From positions 1 to 64,000 of the forward strand of contig JAUZRX010000119.1 in the NCBI GenBank assembly GCA_030949985.1: 64,000 nt of DNA, given 5' to 3'. The notes beneath the pieces were generated by a model, which was not told the DNA's origin, did not search any database, and was given only the letters and a program-made list of their open reading frames with translations. A program made the translations under genes and the position numbers. The stretch comes from Acidobacteriota bacterium (GTDB lineage: Bacteria > Acidobacteriota > Polarisedimenticolia > J045). This document shows, piece after piece, positions 45,905 through 53,598 of the stretch. Each line of letters opens with the position of its first letter. The stretch's first letter is position 1.

Positions 45905-47140
45905 ATGGGATATCTGGGGGCGGGGATGAGAGCGATCAGCGAAAAATAGACGAATTTGCGCGGCGGGGGGAGCTTGACAGTTGGCTTCCGGACGCGGGAG
46001 AACGAGCGCGGAAAAATACTGCAGGCACGAGTCATGATCGGAGGCATGGCGCTACCCGGCCTCTACCTCGCTATCAGAACTGGGCGGGTCCCTGCCGCCG
46101 CCCGGAATCGGCACTCCGCACTGCGGAGCGGAGACTGTCCTTCCCGGTGGAGGCGATCAGAAGGAGAACGTGTCCGGATGTGTCCGCCACACCCGCCCGC
46201 ATGCGGACGCTTCCGGCACCGAAGCCGGCGCTCGGCCGTCGACCTGATCCGGCCCCGCTCTTGCTTGTTCCGGGAGCATGGAATGGCCCGAAAACCCTGG
46301 ATACCACGCGAGCCCACTCAGCTTGCCGCTTTCGCATGGCCGGGGAGGGGGGCCTCGGAGCGGTCCGCGGCCGTCATTCCCGCTGACGGCCACGCTGTGC
46401 GTTGAACCCTTTCGCTGGCGCGCTTGCTCCTCCCGTTGTCACGTGGAGTCGGCTCCGTGGAGTCGTCGCGTCAGGTGCAAGCGCGGTATGGGAGCAGCAC
46501 GTGCAGGCAGAGTTCAACGAGGAACTCGAGTGGGGCGGAAGCTCTGCTCCTGGCTCCAGTGCGCGGTCGGGGCGCCTTTCGGAGTGGACGGGGGGGCTGC
46601 TCTCGAACTCCGGGAGGTCTCCGGGCGTGTGAACGAGCGCGATTCCGGTCGCCTTGGAGTCCCGCCGGGCCGCCGCCCGGCTCACGTCATCCGCAGTGCC
46701 GCGCCGAGGATGCCGGGTTCGCTCCGCCGCTCGGGCGGCAGGGTTTCGTGGCCCGGCGATGGCAGCCGGCGATCAGGGCCCCGCGCGGGCGCGGCAACCG
46801 CTCGAGGGCTCCGGCGACGCGGAGGACCTCGAGGATTTCGCGCTTCGGGAGTTCGATGTGAGCATCGGCGTGGGCGGGGACGAAGGAAAAGCCGAGTTCG
46901 AGAAGGATCTTGCGGATGACGGAGACGAGCACTGATGCTCGTAAGTGATTGTAAACACACCGGGTCAAGATATCCATGCCGTGCTCGACCGCGCCTGAAC
47001 CCCGCCCCGACCTGCTCCGGTGGCCGAGTCGGCGGCTACGACCGCTTGGTCGTTGCTGTGCCCTGGCTGACGCACGTTGATGCGAGTGGTTTTGAGCCGC
47101 TTGCGTATACCGTCAAACCCGGGTTGTGATGGCAGGGTAT
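45905..47140. other. 1.2-kb stretch without a supported gene
   Basis: Open frames on both strands lack ribosome sites and recognisable domains, and several are mutual shadows. A 96-aa minus-strand frame (46687-46977, starting MDILTRCVYNHLRASV) looks protein-like for about 50 residues and then becomes low-complexity; it may be a gene remnant. An inverted repeat ACGAGCA-N4-TGCTCGT lies at 46925-46942. I see no RNA gene, insertion-sequence ends or array here. Confidence 0.5.
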
Positions 47141-47144
47141 AACC

Positions 47145-47173
47145 TTGACGTCAGGCTCTGTTAGTCGTATCTG
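47145..47173 (+). promoter_or_regulatory. Candidate promoter upstream of Hcp-like gene
   Basis: TTGACG, a 17-base spacer and TATCTG, about 78 bases before the ATG at 47251. The -35 and spacing match the rplU promoter; the -10 is weaker. A TATAAC box also occurs at 47138. Confidence 0.35.
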
Positions 47174-47180
47174 TTTGGCC

Positions 47181-47206
47181 TTCGAACATACCGTTCGAAC
47201 ATGCCG
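47181..47206. repeat. 13-bp tandem direct repeat in 5' leader
   Basis: TTCGAACATACCG is followed at once by TTCGAACATGCCG, with one mismatch. Each unit holds the palindrome TTCGAA. A short hairpin (CGAGC/GCTCG, 47205-47220) follows. The place, between promoter and start codon, suits a repressor site. Confidence 0.45.
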
Positions 47207-47250
47207 AGCGAGAAAGCTCGCGCAGCCGGGAGAAGACGGGAGAAGAACTG

Positions 47251-47745
47251 ATGAAGACCATACTTCGGAGGGCGGCGATTGCCCTGATCGGGTTGCTCGT
47301 GGTGAGCCCCGCCTCGGCGGTCGAGAGTTGCGTGAGGTTCGCATCGGGAGTCCAACCCTCTCCCCAGCTACCGGATTACTGCAAGGACGGCTCTTTCCTG
47401 GCACTCGACGTTCATCACCTGCTCCGCAGGACCGGGTCTGGTGGCCAGGGCCGCATTCTCGAGGACATCGTACTCCGAAAGCGCCTCGACGCTTCGTCGC
47501 CGGGGCTCTGGAGCCTGCTCGACAATCAGAGCAGCCAAGAGGTCACCATCAGTTTCTATCAGACCAACGGCGCCGCGACCGAATTCCGCGCCAGGCTGAT
47601 CCTCTCGGGCGCCCGAGTCGTCGCCATCGAACCCGCCACGCCGCGGGAATCCGAATTTATCAAAGACCTCGAACGCATCCGCCTGCAATACGACGTCGTC
47701 ACCCTTGAATACAAGGATGGCTCGAGTTCCGCGATCAGCAGGTAG
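47251..47745 (+). CDS. Exported Hcp-like protein 1
   Basis: A 164-aa protein with a Sec signal (MKTILRRAAIALIGLLVVSP, cleavage near ASA). The mature part follows the Hcp1 (type VI tube) beta-barrel pattern: a small-residue turn, ILEDIVLRKRLDASSPGLW, VTISFYQ, FRARLILSGARVVAIEP and LERIRLQYDVVTLEY. C27 and C44, both near the mature N terminus, could form a disulfide and are matched in the next gene. GGAG precedes the ATG. The Hcp relation is by pattern only; no type VI gene is near. Confidence 0.7.
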   Translation: MKTILRRAAIALIGLLVVSPASAVESCVRFASGVQPSPQLPDYCKDGSFLALDVHHLLRRTGSGGQGRILEDIVLRKRLDASSPGLWSLLDNQSSQEVTISFYQTNGAATEFRARLILSGARVVAIEPATPRESEFIKDLERIRLQYDVVTLEYKDGSSSAISR

Positions 47746-47768
47746 GCGAGGGGAATGAGGACTCTGTG

Positions 47769-48296
47769 ATGAAAAAGTGGATACTGGCTCTGGCGGTTTG
47801 CGGTGCTGTGTGCAGCTTCGCTCTCGGTGCTTACGACAGTTGCGTGCTGGTCGATGACGGCTCGGGCACCGACTGGGTCTCGGACTATCCGGCCCCTCAC
47901 TGTCGCCGGAGTATCGATGAGATCACTGGCCTGGAGTTCCATCATCTCATGCGATCTGCCACGCGAGGGACCGAGCACGAGAACGTGATCTTTCTCAAAG
48001 AACTGGAGGCGACATCGACCCGCTTCTGGGACGCCTACAACAGCTTTCAGATCTTGCCGCGAGTGACGTTCTCGTTCTTTGATCCTGATCCCAGCGGCCG
48101 GCTGGTATTGCACCATCAGGTGATTCTCGAGAGGGTTCGGGTGCTGGCCATCGAGCTGATCGACATCGAGCCCACCGACGGCGGCGGCCCACGCCAGCCG
48201 CCGCGGGAGCGCATCCGCCTCGAGTACGGCACCATCACCATCGACGTCGACGGCCAGAGCAGAACCTTGACCAATCCCTCCGGCCCGCAGGTCTAG
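47769..48296 (+). CDS. Exported Hcp-like protein 2
   Basis: A 175-aa paralogue of the preceding gene. It has a signal peptide (MKKWILALAVCGAVCSFALG) and then the same order of elements: YDSC (C25), APHC (C45), LEFHHLMRS, VIFLKELEATSTRFWDAY, VTFSFF, VILERVRVLAIEL and RERIRLEYGTITIDV. A Gly/Pro insert (about 137-145) replaces a shorter loop in protein 1. The ATG at 47769 has AGGA seven bases upstream; GTG 47766 is an alternative. It starts 23 bases after protein 1, so they are co-transcribed. Confidence 0.7.
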   Translation: MKKWILALAVCGAVCSFALGAYDSCVLVDDGSGTDWVSDYPAPHCRRSIDEITGLEFHHLMRSATRGTEHENVIFLKELEATSTRFWDAYNSFQILPRVTFSFFDPDPSGRLVLHHQVILERVRVLAIELIDIEPTDGGGPRQPPRERIRLEYGTITIDVDGQSRTLTNPSGPQV

Positions 48297-48301
48297 CGAC
48301 C

Positions 48302-49099
48302 GTGACCAGCCTGGCGCGAGAGTGGGGCGGTATGCTGGCGATGGTGGGAGTGCTCATCGCCACGATGGCGGGTGTACGCGCCGCCGAATACCAACTGGAC
48401 TTCGATTACCCCAACCAGGGCGACGACTGGTACGGTCGCGTCCAGGGTGCTGACTTCTCCCGTGACTACCTGGGCACCGAAGCAACGGTCGACACGTTCT
48501 CCGATGGAGACGACTATGGCCGGGGTTACGATCCAGCATTTGCCAGCATGGCCCAGAACGTGGAGCTACTGCGCATGCAGCGCCAGCAATTCGGCTATCG
48601 CTTCTATTTCGAGCCCACCGCCGAGTGCCTGGCCGCTGCGGACTGCGACGACGGCCTGCCCTGCAATGGGACGGAGTCTTGCGGCGATTTCCAGTGCGCC
48701 GCTGGAGCACCGCCGAGCTGCGATGATGGCGACGTGTGCACCGACGATTCGTGCATCGATCCCACCGGTTGCTCCAATACCCTGGTTCCCCCCCCGCTGG
48801 AAGTCCCTCAACTCGACCTGAGCCTCGAGAGTTCCGGCAGCACCGTCGCGCGCCTGGCGTGGATGGCTCCCTCCGGGGATGTGGAGCACTACAACGTCTA
48901 CCGCGGGGAGCAGGTCGCGCTGGGCGATCTGAGCTGTTACGAGAGCGGCATCATGGCCACCGAGTTGCTCGACGACGGCGCCCTGCCGGCATCCGGTCTT
49001 TTCGTGCAGCTCGTCTCGTCGTTCAACTGCACCCAGGAGTCGACCCTCGGCAGCGACTCGGCGGGCAACGAGAGGAACAATTCGGCGCCTTGCCCCTGA
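48302..49099 (+). CDS. Exported Cys-rich protein
   Basis: A 265-aa secreted protein starting five bases after the second Hcp-like gene. The signal is GGMLAMVGVLIATMAGVRAA; GTG 48302 and ATG 48332 are both possible starts. The middle has ten closely spaced Cys in Asp/Gly-rich repeats (ADCDDGLPCNGTESCGD; CDDGDVCTDDSCIDPTGC), the pattern of calcium- or disulfide-rich surface modules common in myxobacterial and acidobacterial exoproteins. The C terminus is an FN3-like strand set (ARLAWMAPSGDVEHYNVYRG) ending in the recurrent STLGSDSAGNER motif. It may be a surface partner of the Hcp-like pair. Confidence 0.75.
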   Translation: MTSLAREWGGMLAMVGVLIATMAGVRAAEYQLDFDYPNQGDDWYGRVQGADFSRDYLGTEATVDTFSDGDDYGRGYDPAFASMAQNVELLRMQRQQFGYRFYFEPTAECLAAADCDDGLPCNGTESCGDFQCAAGAPPSCDDGDVCTDDSCIDPTGCSNTLVPPPLEVPQLDLSLESSGSTVARLAWMAPSGDVEHYNVYRGEQVALGDLSCYESGIMATELLDDGALPASGLFVQLVSSFNCTQESTLGSDSAGNERNNSAPCP

Positions 49100-49150: not shown

Positions 49151-49360
49151 AGTGTCCAAGAGCGCGGGTCGGCTCGAAGCGGGGCGAGCGAACCGACGCG
49201 CAGGACGCGTCGCGCGCGGCTCTGCTGATGCCGCTTGACCCTCGTCGCCGAGTGACTCCGGCGGCTGCTCGAAACCCGCGCGCTCCGGATTCGAGAGAAA
49301 CCGACTCACCCGTCGAATGAGTCCGCGATGCGGGCGATCCGGTCGGGGAGCGCCGGCGCG

Positions 49361-49543
49361 GCGAGGCCAGGGGGGCGAGAGCGGTAGTCTCGTCGAGCGG
49401 GTCGCCGGGCCGGCGCTGCTCGACCCGGGCGCGGAATCGCTCGAGGAAGGCCTCGGCAACGGCCTCGACCAGGATGAAGCTTGGCCGCGATGCGACGCTG
49501 TCCCGCGCCGAGAAAGCGCGAGATCACTTCCTGCTCGGCGGCC
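49361..49543 (-). pseudogene. Frameshifted fragment of aldehyde dehydrogenase gene
   Basis: This 183-base piece aligns along its whole length with 51743-51927, inside the intact semialdehyde dehydrogenase gene 2 kb away on the same strand. The fragment reads EVISRFLGAGQRRIAAK where the gene reads GVTSRFLNAGQSCIAAK, so the catalytic cysteine is lost. A two-base deletion just after this point shifts the frame, and the next part, ERFRARVEQRRPGDPLDETT, is found in another frame. Neither end of the gene is present. It is a decayed partial duplicate, not a functional enzyme. Confidence 0.85.
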
Positions 49544-51296: not shown

Positions 51297-52661
51297 TCAG
51301 CGAATCCAGACGGTCTTGATGTTGACGAACTCGCGGATCCCCTCGCGGCCCAGCTCGCGGCCGTAGCCGGAGAGCTTGATGCCTCCGAAGGGCAGGCGGG
51401 GGTCGGACTTGACCATGCCGTTGACGAAGGCGGCGCCGGCCTCCATCTGCAGGGCGAAGCGTTCGGCGCGGGCGGTGTCGCCGCTGAACACCGCGGCGCC
51501 CAGGCCGAAGGGGGTGTCGTTGGCCAGGCGCAGGGCGTCGGCCTCGTCGGTGGCGCGCAGCACCACCGCCACCGGGCCGAAGAGTTCCTCCTCGTAGGCT
51601 CGCATGCCCGGGCGCACGGCGTCGAGGATCGTCGCGGCGTAGAAGGCGCCGGGGCCGGGCAGGGGCTCACCGCCGCAGAGCACCCGGGCGCCGGCGGCCA
51701 CCGAATCGAGCACCTGCTGGTGGATCTCGTCCCGCAGATCGTGGCGGGCCAGGGGAGCGAGGGTGGTGGTCTCGTCGAGTGGGTCGCCGGGCCGGAGCTG
51801 CTCGACCCGGGAGCGGAAGCGCTCGAGGAAGGCCTCGGCGATGGAGTCCACGAGAATGAATCGCTTGGCCGCGATGCAGCTCTGGCCCGCGTTGAGAAAA
51901 CGCGAAGTCACCCCCTGCTCGACGGCCAGGTCCAGGTCGGCGTCTTCGAGCACCACGAAGGGGTCCGAGCCTCCCAGCTCGAGCACTGTCTTCTTCAGCG
52001 CCCGCCCCGCCGCGGCGGCCACCTGCCGGCCGGCGGGATCGGAGCCGGTGAGGGTCACCGCGCGCACCCGCGGATCGGCGATCACCGGCGCCACTTCCGA
52101 GGCGCGGATCATCAGCGTGGTGAACGCTCCGTCGGGAGCGCCGGCGGCCTGCCACACGCGCTCGATTTCCACGGCGCAGCGGGGCACGTTCGACGCGTGC
52201 TTGAGCAGGCCCACGTTGCCCGCCACGAGGGCCGGTGCGGCGAAGCGGAAGACCTGCCAGAGGGGGAAATTCCAGGGCATCACCGCCAGCACGGCGCCGA
52301 GGGGCTGGAAGACCACGTAGCTGCGGCCCGCATCGCTGGCCACGACCTCCGGCTCGAGGTAGGCCGGCCCGTGCTCGGCGTAGTGCTCGCAGACCCAGGC
52401 ACACTTGTCCACTTCCGCCCGGGCCTCGTTGATGCACTTGCCCATCTCGAGGCTCATGGTGCGCGCCAGTTCCTCCCGCCGGTCGCGCAGCACACCGGCG
52501 GCGCGCGAGACGATTCGGCAGCGGTCCCGGAGCGGCGTGGCGGCCCAGGATCGGGCTGTCTCGGCGGCGGTGTCCAGGGCGCTTTCGACCCGTTCTGCGG
52601 GCCAGGTCGCCAGGGTTTCCAGGACATCTCCGGTGGCGGGGTTGATCGACTGCAGGCTCAT
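51297..52661 (-). CDS. gabD: Succinate-semialdehyde-type aldehyde dehydrogenase
   Basis: A 454-aa NAD(P)-dependent aldehyde dehydrogenase closest in pattern to the shorter succinate-semialdehyde dehydrogenases. Key parts are MPWNFPLWQVFRF, TGSDPAGRQVA, ELGGSDPFVV (E228) and NAGQSCIAAKRF (nucleophile C262). The C terminus is LPFGGIKLSGYGRELGREG. The start at 52661 has GGAG about 11 bases upstream. A GABA-type aminotransferase gene 2.7 kb away makes the product of that reaction, succinate semialdehyde, a plausible substrate. A broken partial copy of this gene lies at 49361. Confidence 0.9.
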   Translation of the reverse strand: MSLQSINPATGDVLETLATWPAERVESALDTAAETARSWAATPLRDRCRIVSRAAGVLRDRREELARTMSLEMGKCINEARAEVDKCAWVCEHYAEHGPAYLEPEVVASDAGRSYVVFQPLGAVLAVMPWNFPLWQVFRFAAPALVAGNVGLLKHASNVPRCAVEIERVWQAAGAPDGAFTTLMIRASEVAPVIADPRVRAVTLTGSDPAGRQVAAAAGRALKKTVLELGGSDPFVVLEDADLDLAVEQGVTSRFLNAGQSCIAAKRFILVDSIAEAFLERFRSRVEQLRPGDPLDETTTLAPLARHDLRDEIHQQVLDSVAAGARVLCGGEPLPGPGAFYAATILDAVRPGMRAYEEELFGPVAVVLRATDEADALRLANDTPFGLGAAVFSGDTARAERFALQMEAGAAFVNGMVKSDPRLPFGGIKLSGYGRELGREGIREFVNIKTVWIR

Positions 52662-52683
52662 GGTGGGCAGGACTCCAGGGGGC

Positions 52684-53598
52684 TCAGAAACGCACGGAGA
52701 AAAAGAGACTGTAGTGGAAGGTGCTCGAATCGTACTCGTAAGAATACGTGCTGTCTGCGGCGGGGACACGGTAGAGATTGCGCGCGTACTCCATCTCGGT
52801 ACCCACGGCGTACTGCCCGCGCATGCCGAAGCGATAGCCCACCTGGGGTTGGCAGATCAGCTTGTGCTCGCCGCCCGGAGCCAGCCAGGTGGGCCCCTTG
52901 CTCATCAGGCCGGGATAGAAGTCCGGCCACTGCTCGACGACCTGCCACTCCTGCTTCCAGTAGTCGCAGAAGCCGCGGGTGAAGATCTCGTTCTTGCCCG
53001 CCCGCCAGGTCTTGAGCCACTCGACGGTGACCTGCCAGCCGTCCTCGTAGGGCCAGTCGTCGCGCACGGTGGCCAGTTGGGGGTAGCCGAAATAGTCGAT
53101 GTAGGGAATCTCGTACTCTTCGTGGTAGGTCTTGAACTTCTTGCGCAGCAGGTGGACGTCCAGCACGTCGATCGCGCCGCCGCCGAAGCTGAGCACCGTG
53201 CCGAAGAGCCACGCCTGGGGAATGAGCTGGTAGCGGCTGTCGGCCAGGCCGTGGTTGTACTGCACCGTCAGGCCCAGGTCGGTCAGCCAGCGGGGCAGGG
53301 TCATGCCGGTGGTCTTGCTCAGGCTGAGGATCGGGGCGACCTCCAGGTAGAGCGTGTCGGTCTCTGTCGAGCGATCGGGCTTGAAGTCCACGTCCAGGTA
53401 GTAGTTGAACGAACCCCAGGAGGTGAAGCCATTGCCCCGTAGGGTCATCAGGTAGCTGGCGCCCGATCCGTAGTACCAGTCGGGGTTGCGGTCGAAGACG
53501 GCGTGAACCTCCACCTCCCCGGTGCCCGCCGCGGCGAAGGGGAGCACGGTGAGAGCGGTGACGAGGGCGAGTCCGGCCAGGGTCCTGGCGATGGTCAT
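52684..53598 (-). CDS. Outer-membrane channel protein (Tsx/DUF5020-like)
   Basis: A 304-aa exported protein with signal MTIARTLAGLALVTALTVLP. The mature part alternates polar and aromatic/hydrophobic residues as in a beta-barrel (DWYYGSGASYLMTLRGNG; FNYYLDVDFKP) and ends in Phe after YSLFFSVRF, the outer-membrane insertion signal. It resembles the Tsx/DUF5020 group, which allow nucleosides or other small solutes to diffuse. AAGGAG is about ten bases before the ATG. It is in one operon with the SSS symporter, implying passage of the same solute. Confidence 0.78.
   Translation of the reverse strand: MTIARTLAGLALVTALTVLPFAAAGTGEVEVHAVFDRNPDWYYGSGASYLMTLRGNGFTSWGSFNYYLDVDFKPDRSTETDTLYLEVAPILSLSKTTGMTLPRWLTDLGLTVQYNHGLADSRYQLIPQAWLFGTVLSFGGGAIDVLDVHLLRKKFKTYHEEYEIPYIDYFGYPQLATVRDDWPYEDGWQVTVEWLKTWRAGKNEIFTRGFCDYWKQEWQVVEQWPDFYPGLMSKGPTWLAPGGEHKLICQPQVGYRFGMRGQYAVGTEMEYARNLYRVPAADSTYSYEYDSSTFHYSLFFSVRF

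What the first reader, a model, noticed from the sequence alone, without database searches (positions are those of the whole stretch)
47251..49099. Tandem exported Hcp-like proteins followed by an exported Cys-rich protein
Two paralogues with Sec signals and a conserved N-terminal Cys pair show the strand order of Hcp, the type VI tube protein, but no sheath, VgrG or baseplate gene is near, and true Hcp has no signal peptide. With a Cys-rich FN3-like protein five bases behind, this may be a surface or extracellular assembly built from Hcp-like rings.
Basis: partly seen in the sequence, partly recalled or inferred. Interest (0 to 1): 0.7.

Follow-up and report, generated by a model that had tools for sequence, protein, structure and literature searches.

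The report
Exported T6SS-tube-fold proteins with dedicated partner
Some Acidobacteriota appear to send out, through the ordinary signal-peptide route, proteins with the fold of the type VI secretion tube subunit Hcp, encoded next to a previously undescribed cysteine-rich exported partner and in genomes that may have no type VI secretion system at all, so the tube fold seems to have been put to another use outside the cell.

Summary
Window genes 47251-47745 and 47769-48296 encode proteins with Sec-type signal sequences that match Pfam's Hcp family above its cut-off (PF05638, E 5e-9 and 1.7e-5). A family profile finds solved Hcp structures at E 1e-18, and the predicted fold of the first superposes on Hcp1 (Foldseek probability 1.00; Z 15.9). 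The genome (complete by estimate) has no VipB, TssK or phage sheath gene over cut-off. New here: the third gene (48302-49099) is not incidental. Its N-terminal domain (motif YDYPxQGxDWYG) occurs in 4 of 396 Acidobacteriota genomes, at six loci; at the five where the upstream side is readable an exported Hcp-like gene lies directly upstream, in three families with unrelated flanks. The exported Hcps form one clade (98/96) and have a shortened L2,3 loop, whose tip stacks Hcp rings into tubes. The Cys pair belongs to a subclade only. Exported Hcp-domain proteins are not unprecedented: other signal-bearing ones occur in the phylum, and PEP-CTERM-tagged Hcps were set aside in a published survey. 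Best reading: a T6SS-independent, extracytoplasmic Hcp-fold/partner module, probably unstacked rings. Ring formation and function are inferred.

The parts
47251..47745 (+). P0001, exported Hcp-fold protein, paralogue 1
   Evidence: PF05638 E 5e-9 over cut-off; AF2 mature chain pLDDT 78.7, Z 15.9 to Hcp1
47251..47319 (+). predicted Sec signal peptide of P0001 (MKTILRR...SPASA|VESC)
   Evidence: sequence inspection; not SignalP-tested
47329..47382 (+). P0001 Cys27-Cys44, flanking the shortened loop between the first two strands; candidate disulfide
   Evidence: pairing inferred
47769..48296 (+). P0002, exported Hcp-fold protein, paralogue 2
   Evidence: PF05638 E 1.7e-5 over cut-off; same clade as P0001
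47769..47828 (+). predicted Sec signal peptide of P0002 (MKKWILALAVCGAVCSFALG|AYDSC)
   Evidence: sequence inspection
47841..47903 (+). P0002 Cys25-Cys45, candidate disulfide
   Evidence: pairing inferred
48302..49099 (+). P0003, exported partner (DWYG protein); GTG start, alternative ATG 48332
48302..48382 (+). predicted signal peptide of P0003
   Evidence: sequence inspection
48383..48622 (+). DWYG N-terminal domain, the part that is specific to this module
   Evidence: A3 alignment and phylum search: six places in 4 of 396 genomes with E at or below 1.2e-35
48623..48781 (+). Cys-rich segment (9 of 12 Cys); replaced by Asp-rich, putative Ca-binding repeats in the G028 homologue
48794..49096 (+). 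FN3-like C-terminal domain ending in Cys-Pro; a class-wide C-terminal domain

Best explanation
P0001 and P0002 are Hcp-fold proteins that were recruited away from the type VI secretion system. They are exported one by one through Sec (inferred from signal sequences), fold outside the cytoplasm, in the window's subclade with a disulfide bracing the N-terminal loop (inferred), and work together with the exported partner P0003 that is encoded next to them. They most likely assemble into small extracytoplasmic rings, perhaps mixed P0001/P0002 rings, that do not stack into a tube because the loop L2,3 that stacks rings is shortened. The DWYG domain of P0003 would bind the ring, and its Cys-rich and FN3-like C-terminal part would hold it at the cell surface or bind a ligand. 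Shown: Hcp homology and predicted fold, signal sequences, conserved linkage, loop shortening, absence of VipB and TssK genes in the own genome. Inferred: export itself, ring formation, binding of P0003 to the Hcps, surface location, function.
For: PF05638 over cut-off for both window proteins and for three relatives. Profile search of solved structures: Hcp 5urw E 9.8e-19, Hcp3 3he1 8.2e-18. Predicted fold: Foldseek's leading hits are Hcps at probability 1.00; VIA Z 15.9, 2.7 A over 134 residues to 4hkh. Own genome has only these two Hcp hits and no VipB, TssK or phage sheath over cut-off. The module is also in G031, which lacks VipB and TssK. DWYG domain present at 6 places in 4 of 396 genomes; an Hcp-like gene lies directly upstream at all 5 places where it can be read, including the split G035:C257 copy; the sixth is cut at a contig start. 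Flanks differ: CHAT/ECF sigma genes, kinase and GH10, PIN-like genes, ribosomal/obgE genes. One clade, 98/96. The segment carrying loop L2,3 has 17-22 residues versus 25-28 in ten canonical Hcps; mutating the tip of that loop leaves hexamers that do not stack (PMC4650826).
Against: No oligomer test was possible; the Hcp fold also suits a monomer or dimer. The N-terminal third of the window proteins diverges from PF05638 (match starts at profile position 38 or later). Model confidence is moderate, and the alignment had 5 sequences. The sample is small: 4 genomes of one class, all in draft. G035 has VipB and TssK and G028 has TssK, so the module is not strictly separate from T6SS genomes. The structure of P0003 could not be predicted (pLDDT 30.7).
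Confidence: 0.45

Rival explanations
1. The Hcp fold is used only as a small beta-barrel scaffold: exported monomers or dimers that bind a ligand or the partner, with no ring.
For: Loop shortening, strong divergence of the N-terminal strand and loop and high divergence among family members (24-31% identity) suit relaxed assembly constraints; an exported protein outside a T6SS has no obvious need of a ring.
Against: The core barrel and helix are kept, and Hcps studied by crystallography form hexameric rings (PMC2944823, PMC4650826).
Confidence: 0.33
2. The exported Hcps are a carrier or periplasmic chaperone for P0003, as Hcp rings hold effectors in T6SS; P0003 would be the cargo.
For: Gene order Hcp then partner resembles hcp-effector pairs; [quoted passage not shown]
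Against: P0003 has its own signal peptide and a multi-domain, Cys-rich build; no delivery machine was found in the own genome.
Confidence: 0.13
3. They are orphan T6SS Hcps used by a T6SS encoded elsewhere in the genome; the signal peptides are spurious.
For: PF05638 membership; G035 has a T6SS with its own canonical Hcp.
Against: Own genome and G031 lack VipB and TssK; signal sequences recur in all five Hcp-like proteins and in the complete partners; T6SS Hcps lack signal peptides (PMC2944823); canonical Hcps next to VipB fall outside the module clade.
Confidence: 0.04

Closest known systems
Hcp/TssD, T6SS tail-tube protein (PF05638, TIGR03344; e.g. E. coli Hcp1 4hkh, P. aeruginosa Hcp3 3he1)
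   Same: homologous sequence; same predicted barrel-plus-helix fold
   Different: signal peptide, shortened L2,3 loop, no VipB or TssK gene in the genome, dedicated exported partner, below the TIGR03344 cut-off
PEP-CTERM-tagged Hcp-domain proteins
   Same: Hcp domain on an exported protein; noted and removed from a survey of Hcps (PMC8262886)
   Different: no PEP-CTERM match here; constant gene partner instead
Other Hcp homologues with signal sequences in the phylum (L032, L044, L039)
   Same: signal peptide plus Hcp domain
   Different: lie outside the module clade, on the side of the other Hcp branch; no DWYG partner (DWYG domain absent from their genomes as far as searched)
Proteins of the class with the FN3-like C-terminal domain (L059-L071)
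   Same: C-terminal domain of P0003 ending in CP
   Different: matched only in the C-terminal half; no DWYG domain reported there

Membership tests
Hcp domain family PF05638 | match over the curated gathering score | tested here: met
   37.0 and 25.6 bits against 23.5
Hcp domain family PF05638 | Hcp barrel fold | tested here: met
   Foldseek prob 1.00, VIA Z 15.9 for P0001; P0002 by homology only
T6SS tube protein TssD (TIGR03344) | score over NCBIfam cut-off 58.9 | tested here: not met
   35.3 and 24.0 bits
T6SS tube protein TssD (TIGR03344) | found in a genome with sheath and baseplate genes | tested here: not met
   no VipB or TssK in own genome
T6SS tube protein TssD (TIGR03344) | no cleavable signal peptide | tested here: not met
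   signal sequences by inspection in all five; no predictor available
T6SS tube protein TssD (TIGR03344) | long L2,3 loop for ring stacking | tested here: not met
   17-22 versus 25-28 residues for the segment that holds it
T6SS tube protein TssD (TIGR03344) | hexameric ring | not testable with these tools
   no multimer prediction or coordinates at hand
PEP-CTERM Hcp proteins | C-terminal PEP-CTERM anchor (PF07589) | tested here: not met
   no such match; C-termini have no hydrophobic tail
Contractile phage-tail-like particles (eCIS) | sheath gene in the genome | tested here: inconclusive
   PF04984 best 11.1 bits against 31.4; other sheath models not tried

The most novel reading that the evidence does not exclude
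A two- or three-gene extracellular assembly, built from Sec-exported, non-stacking Hcp rings capped or anchored by a new family of Cys-rich DWYG proteins: the T6SS tube fold turned into a surface structure with no injection machine.
Probability: 0.35. Interest if true: 0.75.

Novelty: new variant of a known kind. Interest (0 to 1): 0.52.

Why it matters
Tail-tube folds are known as parts of phages and injection machines. A conserved, exported Hcp clade with its own partner, in genomes that lack a T6SS, would show the fold reused outside the cell, and it warns that PF05638 hits alone overcount T6SS. It also gives a defined set of proteins with which to test whether Hcp rings can serve without stacking.

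Tried and rejected
Scan of genome contigs with P0001 alone found nothing. Structure of P0003 from 5 sequences failed (pLDDT 30.7), so its fold is unknown. Viral contigs: no relative of the DWYG domain; A4 was too diverged for a scan. Plasmid search with the relative P0005: the annotated hits among the rows shown are T6SS Hcps at 31-35% identity. Literature: no description of a Sec-exported Hcp/partner module among the open-access papers searched. Considered and rejected: a conserved larger operon (flanks differ at each locus); a Cys pair conserved in the whole family (only in the P0001/P0002/P0006 subclade); strict absence of the module from T6SS genomes (G035 has T6SS genes, G028 has TssK). 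The weak DWYG hit in G382 (E 4e-4, frame with a stop) was not counted.

Full report
What is there. The three ORFs lie in tandem on the + strand at the given coordinates, with gaps of 23 and 5 bases. P0001 starts behind a plausible ribosome-binding site (GGAGAAG). P0002 has ATG 47769, or GTG 47766 just before it. P0003 has GTG 48302 or ATG 48332. All three begin with a Sec-type signal sequence. No signal predictor was at hand, so this rests on inspection, but it recurs in all five Hcp-like proteins of the family and in the partner proteins whose start is preserved. The contig also carries obgE, nadD, rsfS and L21/L27 genes as judged by eye from the translations, so it is an ordinary chromosomal stretch.

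Is it Hcp? Both window proteins pass Pfam's gathering score for PF05638 (37.0 and 25.6 bits against 23.5), with the match starting at profile position 38-41: the first strand and loop have diverged. Relatives P0004 and P0005 match nearly the whole profile (6-129, E 1.8e-19; 1-129, E 5e-16), which closes the gap. A five-member profile finds Hcp structures in the PDB at E 9.8e-19 and 8.2e-18. AlphaFold2 of mature P0001 with four relatives gave pLDDT 78.7 and pTM 0.74. Foldseek's leading hits are Hcps with probability 1.00, and VIA-align gives Z 15.9, rmsd 2.7 A over 134 residues to E. coli Hcp1, with eCIS and phage tubes following at Z about 10 and below.

No injection machine found. In the own genome (3.7 Mb, completeness 100 by estimate) these two are the only PF05638 matches. 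There is no VipB, no TssK and no phage sheath PF04984 above cut-off. In the class, 8 of 41 genomes have VipB and 9 have TssK. Of the four genomes with the module, own and G031 have neither, G028 has TssK only, and G035 has both plus a canonical Hcp beside VipB. So the module does not need a T6SS, but it is not excluded from genomes that have one.

A conserved gene pair. Relatives of the exported Hcps were found in G028, G031 (two loci) and G035. Directly behind each lies a homologue of P0003. P0003 homologues share a signal sequence, an N-terminal domain with the motif Y-x-x-D-[YF]-D-[YF]-P-x-x-G-x-D-W-Y-G and a second block G-[DN]-D-[YF]-G-x-G-Y, then a Cys-rich segment (Asp-rich repeats in G028), then an FN3-like domain ending in Cys-Pro. 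The FN3-like end is widespread in the class on other proteins and so says nothing specific. The DWYG domain does: 4 of 396 Acidobacteriota genomes, six places. Five of these have the Hcp-like gene directly upstream, one of them split between contigs; the sixth starts at a contig edge. The genomes belong to three family groups, and the neighbours beyond the pair differ (CHAT-TPR and ECF sigma; kinase-like and GH10; PIN-like; obgE region; those not judged by eye). Named loci put the group in Candidatus Polarisedimenticola svalbardensis and other Acidobacteriota MAGs.

Origin and anatomy. In a tree of 31 Hcps the five module proteins form one clade (98/96), next to the branch of Hcps with the longer N-terminal loop, whereas other signal-bearing Hcps of the phylum (L032, L044, L039) lie on the other side. 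Export of Hcp-fold proteins therefore probably arose more than once, although the tree rests on 174 columns and has long branches. P0001, P0002 and P0006 form a subclade (97/90), and only these have the N-terminal Cys pair. In the alignment the stretch holding loop L2,3 has 17-22 residues in the module clade and 25-28 in ten canonical Hcps (rank test p 0.001, not corrected for relatedness). What is missing aligns with the tip segment. In B. pseudomallei Hcp1 residues Q46-T50 at that tip make the contacts between stacked rings, and changing two of them leaves hexamers that do not stack (PMC4650826).

How it may work. Steps shown: homology and predicted fold, signal sequences, linkage, loop shortening, absence of VipB and TssK genes. 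Steps inferred: export, disulfide, ring formation, contact with P0003, and location at the surface. The most economical mechanism is an extracytoplasmic Hcp-fold ring or ring-like oligomer of P0001 and P0002 held or capped by P0003. A ringless scaffold is a serious rival (0.33), and a carrier or chaperone role for P0003 a weaker one (0.13).

Known or new. Exported Hcp-domain proteins are not unprecedented: a survey of Hcps removed PEP-CTERM-tagged ones (PMC8262886). I found no paper describing them as a system, within an open-access library only. The new element is a clade with a constant, uncharacterised partner and a shortened stacking loop. I file it as a new variant of a known kind: a member of the Hcp domain family, not a T6SS tube protein, since signal peptide, genomic setting, loop and the TIGR03344 score all fail that test.

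Noticed in passing
window 49357-49543, - strand: A frameshifted duplicate fragment of the aldehyde dehydrogenase-like gene at 51297-52769 (84% DNA identity to 51740-51927; 68% protein identity over 53 residues) lies just behind the module.
   Followed up: partly
L059-L071, and P0003 48794-49096: An FN3-like C-terminal domain ending in Cys-Pro closes many proteins across this class (41 of 41 genomes have A1 matches); it could be a class-specific sorting or surface domain.
   Followed up: partly
L032, L044 (two tandem genes), L039, L047: Other Hcp-domain proteins with signal-like N-termini, one behind a collagen-like Gly-X-X stretch (L039), one with an extra C-terminal domain (L044); no DWYG partner seen.
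   Followed up: partly
window 47000-48500: G+C drops to 59-64% against about 65-74% around it, and the same-genus genome G001 lacks the module: gain by transfer or repeated loss.
   Followed up: no
L046 (G031:C146): In G031 one copy stands behind an ECF-type sigma factor gene, a gene without Pfam match and a TPR-CHAT protein gene.
   Followed up: no
window 46170-46213 and 48-92: A 45-base inverted match (82%) between the region upstream of the module and the window start; may be a small dispersed repeat.
   Followed up: no
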